Source: Roseivirga sp.
GTDB lineage: Bacteria; Bacteroidota; Bacteroidia; Cytophagales; Cyclobacteriaceae
DNA length: 64,000 nt
Reading direction: 5' to 3'
Assembly (NCBI GenBank): GCA_021404565.1
Contig: JAAWWF010000026.1
Span: forward strand, 372,001-436,000
This document shows positions 15,462 through 30,570 of this stretch, piece after piece. Numbering within the stretch: position 1 is the stretch's first letter; every line of letters begins with the position of its first letter. The notes under the pieces are model-generated. The model was given only the letters and a program-made list of their open reading frames with translations. It was not told the DNA's origin and ran no database searches. The position numbers and the translations under genes are program-made.

Positions 15462-18400
15462 ATGATAAACGAAGAGTTCTCAGAAATAGTCAATCATCTC
15501 GAATACCTTAATCAAGAGTTGGAGTTGGAATCAGGCACCGTAGCAGTCAGAGTCACTACAAGAATCCTAGAAGGTAAATCAGGGGCTGGGGTTTACAGGG
15601 TAGACGTAAAATCTAACATGTACTCTGGAGCGGCAATTCTTAAAATACAAAAAGCCATTAAATGGAGTGACGATACACTTCTAGAGCATGAGAGGTTCAA
15701 ACAACTCTCTGAAAAAGCTCCATCTTTTGTCAAGAGCTATTGTCCTGAATTGATATGGGCTGGTTGTTATGAAGAGGATCAAATGTATCTAATGAATCTT
15801 GCCGGACAATCTCTGCTGCAAATGGGGCCATTGAAAGGTGTAACTGGTGATAAAGACCGCAAGGGAGTTCTGCACCACATTGTCAATTGCATGCTATCGG
15901 ACTTCCAGGAGGGCGGGTTGAAAATTAAACACTTCAATAATCCGACTGTCGTATTGAAGAATTGGCTTGGTTATAGACTGGAAAAAGGTGGGACAATTGA
16001 AACATTTTTGAAGGCAAAAGGCATGGAATCAGATGCGACTAATTACACAATAGATGGTGTGATACTGCCTAACCCCCTTGCTTTTTGTCTGGAACCAAAG
16101 TTATGGCGAGCTCCGAGTTTGCCTAAAGTGGGGTTTGTTGGTCGTCTGCACGGTGATTTACATGAAGGCAATGTGTTGGTAAGGAAACAGCACGATGAGA
16201 CATGGCAGCTCTCGATTATTGACATGGCACTCTATGAAGAATCAAAATACTTGTTTTACGATACAGCATATTTGGAATACAGTATGCTATCTCGTTTTCT
16301 TGCGAACCATACTGAATCCACATGGCGCAAACTTCTACAACAAGTCACTGAAGGGGGGCTTGAAAAACAATTTGGGTATGATATGCTTGCTCCAGCTGAT
16401 GCCGGTATTGTAAAATCAGTTAGCGCTATTGGTGAGTCCATTGAAGAATTTGCAGCAACTAGTAAAGCCCTAAAAAATCGAGTTGACGAAAGGGTCTTTC
16501 AGGTAAACTTGGCAAGAGTAGCCGTAGGTCTGAACTTTATCAACAAAGCAGGATTGACGGATAAAGAAAGGTGTTTTGCTTTAATCTTCGCTTCAGTCTT
16601 TTTACAGAAAATTCTTGATCCCTTTTCTATTAAGTGGAATACACAAAAGCAAAGCCAGGGAGAGAATCCTCCAGCAATAATTACTAAGTCAAACGATAAT
16701 TGGAGCGATGCCTATGAGCGGCTTGACAGATTCCAAAACTACACCAATACATATGTTCTCATCAGTGATGGGCACGATATTGAGAATATTACAGATGTAG
16801 CTTTTAGCGCTCTTGGCAAGGTTCCATGGCATTTAATAATTGATTTTGATGTTGATTCCGCTACCTCCGGAAGGCTCGAGAATTCCTTATCACCACACTT
16901 AAAGAATAATAGGTCTTTACACCTCCTAATGCCTGAAAACGAGAGGGAACTTCGGTCAATCAATTATGAAAATGCGACCCTGTGGTTATTGGCTAACGGA
17001 CGAGTTGATATTCCAAATACCATTTGCCATACTTTCAAAAGCTGGCGACAGAAGTACAAGGAGTTTATTCGTGAAGCGGCTCAGAGAGTTCTACAAGGTC
17101 ATAAGTTCGAGCCAATCAAATTACTCTGTGTTGTTAATAATATTGATCAACAACGTCTCATTCGTACATTAGAAGTTTTTGAAGAACTATATGATGAATA
17201 TTTCGAGATTATTGTGCTAAGCAGTGATATCTCTGTTAAAGACGCGTTTGAAGAATTTGAAAAGGTCCATTTTAGCAATTGTAGCTTCAGTGCTTTTTGT
17301 GAAGGGCTTTTGGAAACATACGGACCTGAAGGAGCTTCCGATGAGGTGCTAGTGCCATTCAGAAAGACTAAGATTGACGCTAATGAGGGTGGTCAGACAA
17401 GGACAGTCATACAACTAGATATTTCAAAGGTAAAATGGATGGAAGAGGATTTTCAGATAGTTCATTCCGGATTATTGGACCAGGAAAATCCCGATCAAGT
17501 ATTACAGACCAATTTTTTGAAGGGACATGAAATTACCTGGAACGACATAAATAGAAATCATGACATAAAAAGAGAAATAACAAATGATTTAAAACAGGAG
17601 CTATTAATCAAGCTTAGTGAGTCAAGTAATGTAACTAAAAGCTTCTACCACAATGCGGGAGCTGGTGGAACCACGGTAGCCAAGCGCATTGCATGGGAAG
17701 TCAAAGGACGATTTCCTACTGTCATGCTTAAAAAGTACTCTGTTTATACTACCGCACGACTTGGCTACCTTTTTTCACAGACAAACTTGCCTATTTTTGT
17801 TGTGATTGACACATCTGTGGTATCACCTTCCGAAAGGGAAATCTTACACAACAGTCTTAAACAGGACAATACCAGGGCGGTACTTTTAAACGTACAGCGC
17901 ATAAGCAAACAGAGGAGTGCCAAGAGCCATGTGTTGACTGATTCCATGACATATGAAGAAGCAAAGAGCTTTTTAGCAGAGTTTTCTACGCTTGCTCCGA
18001 CAAAAGAGCGGATACTTCGAAACCTATTGAACAGTGAGAATGCACATTTAAGGAGTCCTTTCTTTTTCGGTCTATTCTCTTACGAAGATAAATATCAGAG
18101 ACTTCCGGACTACGTCAAATTGCACTTAGTAGATCTAAAACCAGAACTCAAATCAGCATTGATATATACCGCAATGGTCACACGGTTTACACAATCTTTA
18201 GTGCCTGAATGGCTGTTTCGTTTGTTGATTGGCATTAAAAGTCCTAATAGCAGAGAGCCTACATTGCAAAGGCTGGACTCAAAGGTGAAGAAACTCATCA
18301 AGAAGGAGAAGTTGGGGATTCGAATTGTTCACCCAAAGATTGGCGAACAAATCCTCAAAGAGTATTTAGAACCCAGAGTAGGAAATAGTAATGAAAAATG

Positions 18401-19925
18401 GACACTGTTTCTACATGATTATGCTGTAGAATTCATAGAGTTCCTGGATGGTCTTGCTGAAAGTACAGGTATTGATATTCTGGATCAAAACGATTTGTTG
18501 GAGTTAATACAAAGCTTGTTCATTACCAGAGATGTGGTACAGGACGATGATCATAAGTCCAAGTTTTCAGACCTGGTAACCACAATTAATAGTGAAGAAA
18601 CGCAGTTAGAATTGTTCAATAAACTGACTGAGTTGATCCCGAATGAGGCTCATCTATGGAACCATAAAGCAAGATTATTGACCTATGTAATCAAAGAACC
18701 ATATCATAACTCCATAGAATGCCTGGAGAAAGCCATCGACTTAGAGCCAGATAATCACCTTCACTATCATATGATGGGTATGGTTTACAGGGTAGAGATC
18801 AAAGATCAGATTATCGTTCTTAAGCAAGATAAAAGAGCTGAGGGAGAGCAATCGGAAATCAATGAATTGACCGTTTTCGAGGAATTACAGGGGTTGTATG
18901 AACAAGCTGATATATGTTTCAATCAAGCTCGTGATATTAACCAGGACAATGAATACGGCTACATTACACACATCCAACTTACTCTAGAGTTAATTGAAGG
19001 AATGCGAGGCCTGTCGGGTGTTGAGCATTTTGAAGACTTCCTTAAAAAAGACAATAAAGCGGTAAAGTGGAGCACTGAACTATATTCTAAAGCTCATGAA
19101 TTATTGGAAAAAGTCAAGTTAGTTCAACGTTATGAAGACTTTTCTACCTACACATCTATTTGTGAACAGTCTCTACTGAAATTAGGACGTAATCATGATG
19201 CATTGATTTCTATATTAGAATCCGCTTTGGTCAGGCATGATGATAAAAAGGAATTCATTAGAAGATCAATGTCAAGTACCTTAATGCACTCTTTTGGGAG
19301 GTCCTGGCAAAACGTAACAGAAGATAAGCTGGCCCAAGTTTTGGAATGGACTTCCTCCAACCACAGAGCTGGACTAGCCTCAGACTATGACTATCAAATG
19401 TGGGTCAAAGCCTATTTGAGGCATTCGGGGTTTACTTTTTCAGAAGCACTGATCAGACTCGAAAAATGGAAGATACTTCATGAATCTATTGAAGCATATT
19501 ACTTTCAATTCATCCTTTACTTTTTACAATACCATAGGGGAGATGTTGCCACTCCAGAACGTGCCCTTGCAAACCTTCAGGTATGTAGGGAGCGTAACAG
19601 AATGGAGTCGAGAGGAAATTATTCATTCTATTGGTACTCCAGGACGCCTGGATGGTGTAATCTGAAGCACCGATCTGAACTCGGAAAGTGGGATAAAATC
19701 AAAGAATTTTATCAAAGCGATGAAAAACTTAAGAAGGTAAGTGGCGTCATTAAATCAATTAATGGTCGTCAAAGTGGGTCAATCACAATTGGTCCATTTG
19801 AAGCCTTTTTTGTTCCAAAAGACAAATTCTTGCCGGGTAGTGATCTCAACCGCAAGGTGCTGTTTTATTTGGGGTTTAGTTATGATGGTCTTAGGGCATG
19901 GAATGTCGAGCCTGATGAAAGTTAA
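15462..19925 (+). CDS. SAMD9-like STAND NTPase with N-terminal kinase-like domain, predicted immune protein
   Basis: A 1487-residue multidomain protein. Residues ~30-300 form a protein-kinase/aminoglycoside-phosphotransferase-like fold, with a Gly-rich loop (GKSGAGVYRVDV), a lysine strand (AAILKIQ), a catalytic loop HGDLHEGN (H230, D232, N237) and a metal aspartate in IIDMA (D254). An unassigned alpha/beta region follows to ~700. The NTPase core has an NAGAGGTTVAKRIAW P-loop (G733-T738) and a Walker B-like FVVIDTS (D783). This GGTT type of P-loop is that of the SAMD9 family. Helical repeats, including a TPR-like stretch ~1060-1200, and a C-terminal OB-like domain (~1423-1480) complete the SAMD9-like order. 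It is probably an antiviral sensor whose kinase domain is the effector. It stands alone in the accessory region. Confidence 0.75.
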   Translation: MINEEFSEIVNHLEYLNQELELESGTVAVRVTTRILEGKSGAGVYRVDVKSNMYSGAAILKIQKAIKWSDDTLLEHERFKQLSEKAPSFVKSYCPELIWAGCYEEDQMYLMNLAGQSLLQMGPLKGVTGDKDRKGVLHHIVNCMLSDFQEGGLKIKHFNNPTVVLKNWLGYRLEKGGTIETFLKAKGMESDATNYTIDGVILPNPLAFCLEPKLWRAPSLPKVGFVGRLHGDLHEGNVLVRKQHDETWQLSIIDMALYEESKYLFYDTAYLEYSMLSRFLANHTESTWRKLLQQVTEGGLEKQFGYDMLAPADAGIVKSVSAIGESIEEFAATSKALKNRVDERVFQVNLARVAVGLNFINKAGLTDKERCFALIFASVFLQKILDPFSIKWNTQKQSQGENPPAIITKSNDNWSDAYERLDRFQNYTNTYVLISDGHDIENITDVAFSALGKVPWHLIIDFDVDSATSGRLENSLSPHLKNNRSLHLLMPENERELRSINYENATLWLLANGRVDIPNTICHTFKSWRQKYKEFIREAAQRVLQGHKFEPIKLLCVVNNIDQQRLIRTLEVFEELYDEYFEIIVLSSDISVKDAFEEFEKVHFSNCSFSAFCEGLLETYGPEGASDEVLVPFRKTKIDANEGGQTRTVIQLDISKVKWMEEDFQIVHSGLLDQENPDQVLQTNFLKGHEITWNDINRNHDIKREITNDLKQELLIKLSESSNVTKSFYHNAGAGGTTVAKRIAWEVKGRFPTVMLKKYSVYTTARLGYLFSQTNLPIFVVIDTSVVSPSEREILHNSLKQDNTRAVLLNVQRISKQRSAKSHVLTDSMTYEEAKSFLAEFSTLAPTKERILRNLLNSENAHLRSPFFFGLFSYEDKYQRLPDYVKLHLVDLKPELKSALIYTAMVTRFTQSLVPEWLFRLLIGIKSPNSREPTLQRLDSKVKKLIKKEKLGIRIVHPKIGEQILKEYLEPRVGNSNEKWTLFLHDYAVEFIEFLDGLAESTGIDILDQNDLLELIQSLFITRDVVQDDDHKSKFSDLVTTINSEETQLELFNKLTELIPNEAHLWNHKARLLTYVIKEPYHNSIECLEKAIDLEPDNHLHYHMMGMVYRVEIKDQIIVLKQDKRAEGEQSEINELTVFEELQGLYEQADICFNQARDINQDNEYGYITHIQLTLELIEGMRGLSGVEHFEDFLKKDNKAVKWSTELYSKAHELLEKVKLVQRYEDFSTYTSICEQSLLKLGRNHDALISILESALVRHDDKKEFIRRSMSSTLMHSFGRSWQNVTEDKLAQVLEWTSSNHRAGLASDYDYQMWVKAYLRHSGFTFSEALIRLEKWKILHESIEAYYFQFILYFLQYHRGDVATPERALANLQVCRERNRMESRGNYSFYWYSRTPGWCNLKHRSELGKWDKIKEFYQSDEKLKKVSGVIKSINGRQSGSITIGPFEAFFVPKDKFLPGSDLNRKVLFYLGFSYDGLRAWNVEPDES

Positions 19926-20038: not shown

Positions 20039-20326
20039 CTACGATTCTTTAATCCTTTTAAGGCTTTTAGACAAAGTAATCACATCATAAAGAGAATTCT
20101 TTTCAATATCATCAATCGGAAAATCCGAATGATATAGCGCAATATGATGTACAAGCTTTAGCGACTTGGCCATCTCTTTGGCACCATGAAAATAGATGAG
20201 TTTTAATAGCTCAATTTGAGGCTGTGTCCAGTCTTGGGAATCAATAGTCTCTTCACTGATTTCAGATTGATTTTCGCTTGCCTTGCACTTACAATCGCAA
20301 GGACTTTGACCTTCATGTGTTAGCAT
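20039..20326 (-). CDS. Small conserved protein, copy 1, unknown function (structured leader)
   Basis: A 95-residue acidic protein I do not recognise. It has a clustered cysteine motif SPCDCKCKASENQ (residues ~8-20), then DWTQPQIELLKLIYFHG and a helical C-terminal half. A close paralogue lies at 30104-30391. The two are nearly identical from residue 6 to ~60 and diverge more toward the end, while the first codons differ in a way that follows the leader RNA. The cluster of cysteines could bind metal. The gene is preceded by a 165-nt leader with conserved structure and followed by its own terminator. It might be a small regulator or a toxin/antitoxin partner, but neither is shown. Confidence 0.72.
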   Translation of the reverse strand: MLTHEGQSPCDCKCKASENQSEISEETIDSQDWTQPQIELLKLIYFHGAKEMAKSLKLVHHIALYHSDFPIDDIEKNSLYDVITLSKSLKRIKES

Positions 20327-20491
20327 AATATGAATGGTTTAGAAATGAATAAATAGGAGAGGTCACCGCTAACACATTCCAAGCAGTGCTCAGATAGGTC
20401 TCGGGACTCGCACCCGTATGCCTCTCCGTTATCTTTGTTTAAAACCGATCAAATAGTATTAGCACTTTGATTAAAAATGAAATGTGTTAGC
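20327..20491 (-). ncRNA. Structured leader RNA of the 95-aa gene, copy 1
   Basis: The predicted leader starts with GCTAACACATT (minus strand of 20481-20491). A domain at 20356-20427 is closed by GGAGAGG/CCTCTCC. It holds a hairpin CGGG-TGCGAGT-CCCG followed by GAGACCTAT, then a stem CACTGC/GCGGTG. The loop of that stem includes AATGTGTTAGC (20368-20378 on plus), the exact complement of both the leader's 5' end and the start-codon region ATGCTAACACAT. The copy at 30392-30558 keeps the domain with a changed closing pair (A-U to G-C). It keeps the triple complementarity with a different sequence, so the pairing is conserved although the bases are not. It is likely a switch that exposes or hides the start codon. 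Confidence 0.7.
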
Positions 20492-20495
20492 ACTA

Positions 20496-20503
20496 CAAAT
20501 ATA
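20496..20503 (-). promoter_or_regulatory. Candidate -7 box for the 95-aa gene leader, copy 1
   Basis: The minus strand reads TATATTTG, a perfect Bacteroidota TAnnTTTG box, followed by four bases and then the first complementary segment of the leader. That would put the transcript start inside or at this segment. The paralogous locus has TATCTTTA at the same offset. I see no clear -33 TTTG. Confidence 0.55.
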
Positions 20504-30103: not shown

Positions 30104-30391
30104 TCAAGAGCTCTCAACTCGTTCTAATGCCTCAGCGAGTGATTTCAAATCATAAAGTGAATCCTTTTCTAAGCGGTCTAAAGGCTCTTCTGACTGATAA
30201 AGGGCCAAATCATGAATTACTCTTATGGATTTCGCCATTTCTTGAGGACCATGAAAATAGATGAGTTTTAACAGCTCAATTTGAGGCTGTGTCCAATCTC
30301 CGGAATCAATTGTTTCTTCTGAAATAGGAGACTGATTTTCGCTTGCCTTGCACTTACAATCGCAAGGACTTTGACCATCTGAAGTTCGCAT
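30104..30391 (-). CDS. Small conserved protein, copy 2, unknown function (structured leader)
   Basis: A 95-residue paralogue of the protein at 20039-20326. They share GQSPCDCKCKASENQ, ISEETIDS and DWTQPQIELLKLIYFHG, then drift (EMAKSIRVIHDLALYQSEEP here). The opening codons encode MRTSDGQ where copy 1 has MLTHEGQ. This difference follows the change in the base-pairing site of the leader. Like copy 1 it has a TAnnTTT-type promoter, a 167-nt leader with a three-way-junction domain, its own terminator, and a ~0.8 kb structured repeat nearby. The product is unidentified, and a metal-binding or DNA/RNA-binding regulator is possible. Confidence 0.72.
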   Translation of the reverse strand: MRTSDGQSPCDCKCKASENQSPISEETIDSGDWTQPQIELLKLIYFHGPQEMAKSIRVIHDLALYQSEEPLDRLEKDSLYDLKSLAEALERVESS

Positions 30392-30558
30392 AATAATGGG
30401 TTTTAAAGAATGAATAAAGTAGGGGAGTCACTGCGAACTTCATCAAAGCGGTGCCTTGAATAGGTCTCGGGACTTTCACCCGTATGCTCCCCAATAACTT
30501 AGGTTTAAACCAATTGTGAGTAATTGACACCATGTGAATAATAATTGATAAAGTTCGC
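30392..30558 (-). ncRNA. Structured leader RNA of the 95-aa gene, copy 2
   Basis: The leader begins at about 30558 with GCGAACTT. A domain (30422-30492) is closed by GGGGAG/CTCCCC and has the hairpin CGGG-TGAAAGT-CCCG followed by GAGACCTAT. The stem CACCGC/GCAGTG holds one C-A mismatch where copy 1 has U-G. The loop carries TGAAGTTCGC (30433-30442 on plus), the complement of both the leader's 5' end (8 nt) and the start region ATGCGAACTTCA (10 nt). The spacing between loop site and start-codon site is 44 bases in both loci. The same contacts are made with different bases. Confidence 0.7.
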
Positions 30559-30562
30559 GCCA

Positions 30563-30570
30563 TAAAGATA
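30563..30570 (-). promoter_or_regulatory. Candidate -7 box for the 95-aa gene leader, copy 2
   Basis: The minus strand reads TATCTTTA, one base from the TAnnTTTG consensus. It is four bases before the first pairing segment of the leader, as in copy 1. Conservation of this offset while the surrounding bases differ supports a shared transcription start. Confidence 0.5.

What the first reader, a model, noticed from the sequence alone, without database searches (positions are those of the whole stretch)
20315..20503. Leader RNA with three matching segments that could switch start-codon access, with a sequence-divergent twin
On the minus strand, GCTAACACATT begins the predicted transcript, its exact complement AATGTGTTAGC sits inside the structured domain, and GCTAACACAT recurs at the ATG of the 95-aa gene. 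In the twin at 30380-30570 the three places read GCGAACTT, TGAAGTTCGC and GCGAACTTCA. The sequences differ but the complementarity is kept, as are the 44-base spacing between the middle and start-codon sites and the position of the -7 box four bases before the first segment. This within-locus covariation is strong evidence of real pairing. The simplest reading is a mutually exclusive switch, where 5' end with middle frees the start codon and middle with start hides it. It could instead be a locus-specific guide or a set of operators recognised by the divergent proteins. I know no described system with this plan.
Basis: partly seen in the sequence, partly recalled or inferred. Interest (0 to 1): 0.85.

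Follow-up and report, generated by a model that had tools for sequence, protein, structure and literature searches.

The report
C4-like phage antisense RNA in Bacteroidota
This leader is a structured RNA that carries the complement of its own gene's start codon, laid out like the antisense RNA with which phage P1 silences its antirepressor, and it occurs in Bacteroidota phages and chromosomes with dozens of different matching codes.

Summary
Confirmed and extended. Both leaders contain segment a at the predicted 5' end, its complement a' inside a structured domain, and a'' starting at the G of the ATG. Of 85 scored copies (Bacteroidota genomes and 12 viral contigs), 78 keep both complementarities, with 43 different 10-nt codes overall. 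In a 31-sequence alignment a:a' is 99.7% paired with 9 of 11 pairs changed on both sides; a':a'' is 97.1% paired with 8 of 10. The P3 hairpin loop also covaries with an upstream site. This is the plan of phage P1 C4 antisense RNA: promoter, a1, b1, RNA carrying b' and a', a2, small ORF, antirepressor. In 6 of 12 viral contigs the leader's ORF, or one of the next two, matches an antirepressor family (Rha, AntA, Bro-N; one below cut-off). It does not match Rfam C4, and no downstream b2 site was found. Most likely it is a Bacteroidota counterpart of C4/CI RNA that blocks its own code-matched start codon. Trans action, processing and the 95-aa protein's role are inferred. The plan is known; the family seems undescribed.

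The parts
20496..20503 (-). Predicted -7 box TATATTTG of the leader promoter
   Evidence: Sequence; a TAnnTTT-type box lies within 16 nt upstream of a in 68 of 82 copies against 3.7% of random places
20478..20491 (-). Segment a (a1-like), predicted 5' end of the transcript
   Evidence: 14 bp with a', one G-U; covariation
20461..20466 (-). Segment b (AGTGCT), complement of the P3 loop
20356..20427 (-). Structured RNA domain of about 72 nt: P1 20427-20421 with 20362-20356, P2 20416-20413 with 20405-20402, P3 20393-20388 with 20384-20379
   Evidence: Covariation of the three helices
20385..20390 (-). b' (AGCACT), in and beside the P3 loop
20368..20381 (-). a', the complement of a and a''
20315..20324 (-). 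a'', from the G of the ATG into codons 2-4
   Evidence: its 12-nt start sequence occurs once in the genome
20039..20326 (-). 95-aa ORF: variable N-terminus, conserved three-helix C-terminal domain
30563..30570 (-). Twin: predicted -7 box TATCTTTA
30545..30558 (-). Twin: segment a
   Evidence: 14 bp with a', one G-U
30526..30531 (-). Twin: segment b (GGTGTC), pairing b' GGCACC at 30455-30450
30422..30492 (-). Twin: structured domain, P1 30492-30487 with 30427-30422
30433..30446 (-). Twin: a'
30380..30389 (-). Twin: a'' from the G of the ATG
   Evidence: its 12-nt start sequence occurs once in the genome
30104..30391 (-). Twin: 95-aa ORF, 68% identical to the first

Best explanation
The leader encodes a C4/CI-type antisense RNA that belongs to the operon it controls. 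One promoter makes a transcript a - b - [about 73-nt three-helix RNA with b' in the P3 loop and a' before the closing P1 strand] - a'' (AUG) - ORF. Shown here: the fold, the a:a', b:b' and a':a'' pairings kept through compensatory change, the position of a'' on the start codon, and the presence of the same leader in phage contigs at antirepressor genes. Inferred: the RNA is released (RNase P at the P1 5' end as for C4, and/or termination at the U-rich stretch after P1); its a' then pairs with a'' of transcripts of the same code and blocks start-codon access; the upstream a is a second target or a sink for a'. In phages this would keep the antirepressor operon silent in the lysogen and the code would set immunity specificity. 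The window copies are cassettes without a recognised phage gene beside them that use the same RNA on an unknown small helical protein.
For: Covariation of a:a', a':a'' and b:b' and of P1-P3; 78 of 85 scored copies keep both complements, 43 codes; the downstream site starts at the G of the start codon in 78. Same order as phage P1 immI with identical a1 and a2, and the same order of helices as C4. 12 viral contigs with the leader; an antirepressor-family ORF is the leader's ORF or one of the next two in 6 of the 12, and an integrase lies near it in L124 and L133; bacterial copy L089 has Rha as its ORF. Unrelated proteins follow the same leader. Each window start sequence (12 nt) is unique in its genome. 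T makes up 0.80-0.87 of positions 14-17 after the start of the GTGAC-type motif, just after P1. C4 precedent for RNase P release and a' specificity: passages of PMC5320573.
Against: No transcript, processing or repression data. No match to the Rfam C4 model in the window at gathering score or in 8 loci at E up to 5, and no b2-like downstream site (matched 4.7, mismatched 4.5 pairs). a' is only moderately free in the predicted mature RNA (0.47 against 0.33 overall; above 0.5 in 30 of 78). a:a' is predicted stronger than a'':a' in 49 of 78, so a' could stay sequestered in cis. 7 of 85 copies lack a complement. Different codes within a genome: 1 of 64 pairs identical against 5.4 expected, P 0.015 combined but 0.15 and 0.06 for the two families apart, and orthology confounds it. 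The window ORFs are not antirepressors.
Confidence: 0.72

Rival explanations
1. Purely cis-acting switch: a:a' leaves the start codon free, a':a'' hides it, and a ligand, a protein or temperature acting on the conserved core decides. No RNA is released.
For: The two duplexes exclude each other and have similar predicted energy. The 5' site often has U where the start site has C, so a:a' is longer but carries G-U pairs, as in a tuned competition. The scaffold is strongly conserved.
Against: Many unrelated downstream proteins and no shared pathway; antirepressor operons in phages and the P1 precedent; 43 codes, which a cis switch does not need.
Confidence: 0.2
2. Type I toxin-antitoxin-like mRNA (hok type, recalled): metastable 5' pairing delays translation of a harmful small protein.
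For: Small ORFs, many dispersed and tandem copies, and several broken ORFs.
Against: The 95-aa family is a soluble-looking three-helix protein with dN/dS about 0.13, not a short hydrophobic peptide; phage copies precede antirepressors.
Confidence: 0.05
3. DNA-level function: a and a'' are target repeats, or operators, of a guide-directed mobile element or a binding protein.
For: Near-identical direct repeats flank the RNA domain and the copies are dispersed.
Against: Promoter, RNA and start codon keep a fixed layout; G-U pairs are tolerated in a:a', which suits RNA; no recombinase is part of the unit in the loci read.
Confidence: 0.03

Closest known systems
C4 antisense RNA of phages P1/P7 (Rfam RF01695, with c4-a1b1 RF03163)
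   Same: Order promoter, a1, b1, RNA (77 nt in P1), a2, small ORF, antirepressor; P1-P2-P3 order with a single strand before the closing P1 strand; identical a1 and a2; specificity in a' (passages of PMC5320573)
   Different: No match to the Rfam model; no b2 site found; a2 covers the AUG and the next codons; a:a' is up to 14 bp; table in PMC2864571 lists C4 for Proteobacteria and phages
CI RNA of satellite phage P4 (seqA, CI, seqC)
   Same: An antisense RNA processed from its own leader pairs with sites upstream and downstream of itself (passage of PMC4825925)
   Different: P4 acts by transcription termination on replication genes; here the downstream site is a start codon. Termination is possible (U-rich stretch after P1) but untested
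C4-like sRNA group of Acinetobacter baumannii
   Same: Many chromosomal copies of a conserved RNA that vary mainly in the a' loop (passages of PMC5320573)
   Different: Those match the Rfam C4 motif and are described as sRNAs; here each copy stands before an ORF whose start carries the matching code

Membership tests
C4 antisense RNA (RF01695) | Match to the Rfam covariance model | tested here: not met
   Window at gathering score and 8 loci at E up to 5: none; the P1 control scores 68.8 bits. One search is no evidence, as nothing rang in its controls
C4 antisense RNA (RF01695) | P1 enclosing two hairpins and a single-stranded a', with b' in the P3 loop | tested here: met
C4 antisense RNA (RF01695) | a' complementary to a site upstream and to a site at the downstream start | tested here: met
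   78 of 85
C4 antisense RNA (RF01695) | b' complementary to a downstream b2 site | tested here: not met
   Matched 4.7 against mismatched 4.5 after a'', 3.6 against 3.6 in the linker, 79 copies
C4 antisense RNA (RF01695) | Controls an antirepressor operon | tested here: inconclusive
   Seen in 6 of 12 viral contigs and in bacterial copy L089 (ten chosen proteins scanned); not in the window copies
C4 antisense RNA (RF01695) | Released by RNase P at the 5' end of P1 | not testable with these tools
   Only a hint: T before the predicted P1 start in 63 of 78
P4 CI RNA | Pairing causes premature transcription termination | not testable with these tools
   U-rich stretch after P1
Riboswitch (ligand-controlled cis switch) | Match to a known riboswitch family | tested here: not met
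   No Rfam family for the leader
Riboswitch (ligand-controlled cis switch) | Binds a ligand that changes the fold | not testable with these tools
   -

The most novel reading that the evidence does not exclude
Outside phages, Bacteroidota keep repertoires of these cassettes (up to six leaders in one genome, nearly always with different codes) as RNA-coded immunity or addiction units: each RNA silences its own small protein and also any incoming phage transcript that bears the same start-codon code, so that selection acts on the spread of codes. No chromosomal code of the window's family matched a phage code in the small set seen, so this is unproven.
Probability: 0.17. Interest if true: 0.88.

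Novelty: new variant of a known kind. Interest (0 to 1): 0.74.

Why it matters
C4-type RNA immunity is listed for Proteobacteria and phages (table in PMC2864571). A second family with the same plan but no detectable sequence match, in another phylum, would make antisense control of antirepressors a general phage strategy, perhaps evolved twice. It gives 43 natural codes with near-perfect covariation for studying how antisense specificity diverges, points to a lysogeny control element in Bacteroidota phages, and marks an uncharacterised protein family under purifying selection.

Tried and rejected
Rfam on the window and on 8 loci at E up to 5: nothing for the leader; the hits were a tRNA in L091 and low-scoring matches elsewhere. 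Pfam, PHROGs, NCBIfam and PADLOC for the 95-aa family and the ORFs of two divergent copies: no match below E 0.09. AlphaFold without an alignment was poor (pLDDT 45.6). With 30 relatives the C-terminal domain is confident, but there was no match at E up to 0.001 in PDB or viral structures and none below E 0.4 by profile. Small ORFs of six phage contigs are not related to the 95-aa family beyond the coded N-terminus. Three viral patterns found nothing; two others found mostly contigs already held. DNA and protein searches of the phage and plasmid collections gave only weak short matches or none. Phylum search: 3 of 296 genomes, all seen before. Cobalamin riboswitch, twister-sister, group I/II intron, bridge RNA and hok-type ideas were considered from recalled motifs and dropped.

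Rows dropped: of 93 candidate places, 2 had no recognised core (L044, L080; L044 is the same place as L026, whose three sites are visible), 5 had no GTGAC-type end (L093, L095, L121, L128, L132), and L131 was left out as a false match, leaving 85. Some copies are near-duplicates (for example L125, L126 and L134).

Full report
OBSERVATION. The 5' segment pairs with the middle for 14 bp with one G-U, the middle pairs with the start region for 10 bp, and that pairing begins at the G of the ATG. A third relative in the same genome has an 87% identical protein and a deleted leader (C34:123885).

RELATED COPIES. Eleven leaders, ten from the window's genome and other genomes of its family and one from a Roseivirga record, gave a scaffold model without segments a and a''. 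Its three helices covary: 96.8% of cells paired, 7 of 17 pairs changed on both sides, no shuffle of 500 as high on four of five measures and 4 of 500 on the fifth. This model found leaders in 15 of 390 genomes of the family and 13 of 291 of the order; a broader model found 13 of 395 of the class, 6 of 15 in one genus and 3 of 296 of the phylum. These draws overlap and all but include the window's genome. One genome has six leaders; tandem pairs occur. The only named bacterial records are two Roseivirga MAGs: L006 carries the leader, L007 shows only the start region.

THREE-WAY COMPLEMENTARITY. Of 93 candidate places 85 were scored. 82 have at least 8 bp between a' and the upstream region, 79 with the downstream region, 78 both, and in 78 the downstream site starts at the G of the start codon. 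There are 43 different 10-nt codes. Mismatched controls reach 8 bp in 27% and 17% of 5,900 pairs, partly because many codes share their ends. On 31 aligned leaders a:a' has 99.7% of cells paired and 9 of 11 pairs with double changes, a':a'' 97.1% and 8 of 10; slid controls give 23-51%. In many copies the 5' site has U where the start site has C, so a' makes G-U pairs upstream and Watson-Crick pairs at the start. The helix b:b' is paired in 99.4% of cells with 3 of 5 pairs changed on both sides (on two measures, number of such pairs and pair types, it does not exceed its shuffles). In the wider set 54% of 82 reach 6 Watson-Crick pairs against 15% of mismatched controls. A further upstream pairing with the strand between P2 and P3 was seen by eye and not counted.

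PHAGE CONTEXT. A pattern of the P2 hairpin found 16 viral contigs; 12 have the whole leader, 4 are false. In L126 the next ORF is Rha and in L134 AntA; in L125 (Rha) and L130 (AntA) a further small ORF lies between; in L122 the ORF itself is Bro-N, in L123 a below-cut-off Bro-N; L124 and L133 lie near a phage integrase. A bacterial copy, L089, has Rha as its ORF. Pfam was run on ten chosen proteins only; neighbours of the other contigs were listed but not scanned.

COMPARISON WITH C4. The P1 record lists promoter, a1, b1, C4 RNA (77 nt), a2, b2, icd and ant in this order; a1 and a2 are identical. The Rfam alignment shows P1, P2 hairpin, P3 hairpin and a single strand before the closing P1 strand. 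The Bacteroidota leader has the same order of helices, its P3 loop and its strand before P1 pair as b' and a' do, and the operon plan is the same. It does not match the C4 model, has no detectable b2 site and places a2 over the AUG. So it works like C4 in plan, but membership of RF01695 fails; common ancestry is open.

MECHANISM. Step 1, one transcript from a TAnnTTTG-type promoter beginning at or near a: predicted from a box in 68 of 82 copies against 3.7% of random places. Step 2, release of an RNA of 67-78 nt: inferred from C4 and from the U-rich stretch after P1. Step 3, a' on a'' blocks initiation: inferred from position and covariation. Step 4, a as sink or second target: inferred. Predicted energies of the two duplexes are close, which a cis switch would also need. 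a' is only moderately free in the predicted mature RNA (0.47 against 0.33). Within genomes of the two best-sampled families 1 of 64 pairs of copies shares a code with 5.4 expected; P is 0.015 combined but 0.15 and 0.06 apart, and orthologous copies confound the test. Each window start sequence (12 nt) has no second exact site in its genome, where about one would be expected by chance.

THE PROTEIN. The 95-aa family has a variable, low-confidence N-terminus whose first codons are set by the code, and a confident three-helix C-terminal domain. dN/dS of the conserved part is 0.125 (15 sequences of one family) and 0.135 (26 of others), so it is a working gene, although several copies are broken. 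No family or fold match was found. It sits where icd sits in P1; no relation is claimed.

NOVELTY. Searches of the paper library listed no description of this RNA. I saw passages of PMC2864571, PMC5320573, PMC4825925, PMC8201110, PMC8040213 and PMC12710915; other papers only as listings. Supplementary motif lists (for example of PMC8040213) could not be searched, so an unnamed listing may exist.

Noticed in passing
L032, L031, L048, L036, L046, L096, 45-52 nt upstream of segment a: An attC-like end (GTTATCGGCTTTTT-type) precedes the unit in 6 of 40 copies against 1 of 1,262 random stretches; these cassettes may travel in integron-like arrays.
   Followed up: partly
ORFs of L023, L028, L051, L100 and f11 copies such as L058, about codons 18-26: A small hairpin in the coding sequence (GATAC...GTATC or GATGC...GCATC), and in f11 dS is low in codons 12-32 (0.228 against 0.961 in codons 33-95); perhaps a further RNA element.
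   Followed up: no
Window genome contig C34, about 122.6, 123.9, 392 and 402 kb: All four matches to the 95-aa protein in an 8.57-Mb genome lie on one 545-kb contig; two lack the leader.
   Followed up: no
window 15462-19925 (+): A 1,487-aa protein with an nSTAND NTPase domain, a below-cut-off TCAD9 match and weak TPR matches lies next to the first leader's ORF; it looks like a conflict-system protein.
   Followed up: no
L073, L079, L081, L082: In these four the start-codon complement fills the whole 14-nt a' tested and by eye runs on to about 19 nt into the 3' arm of P3.
   Followed up: no
L067 and L092: Leaders with 12-13 bp a:a' and a 10-12 bp b:b' helix but no start-codon site within about 110 nt; the target may lie elsewhere.
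   Followed up: no
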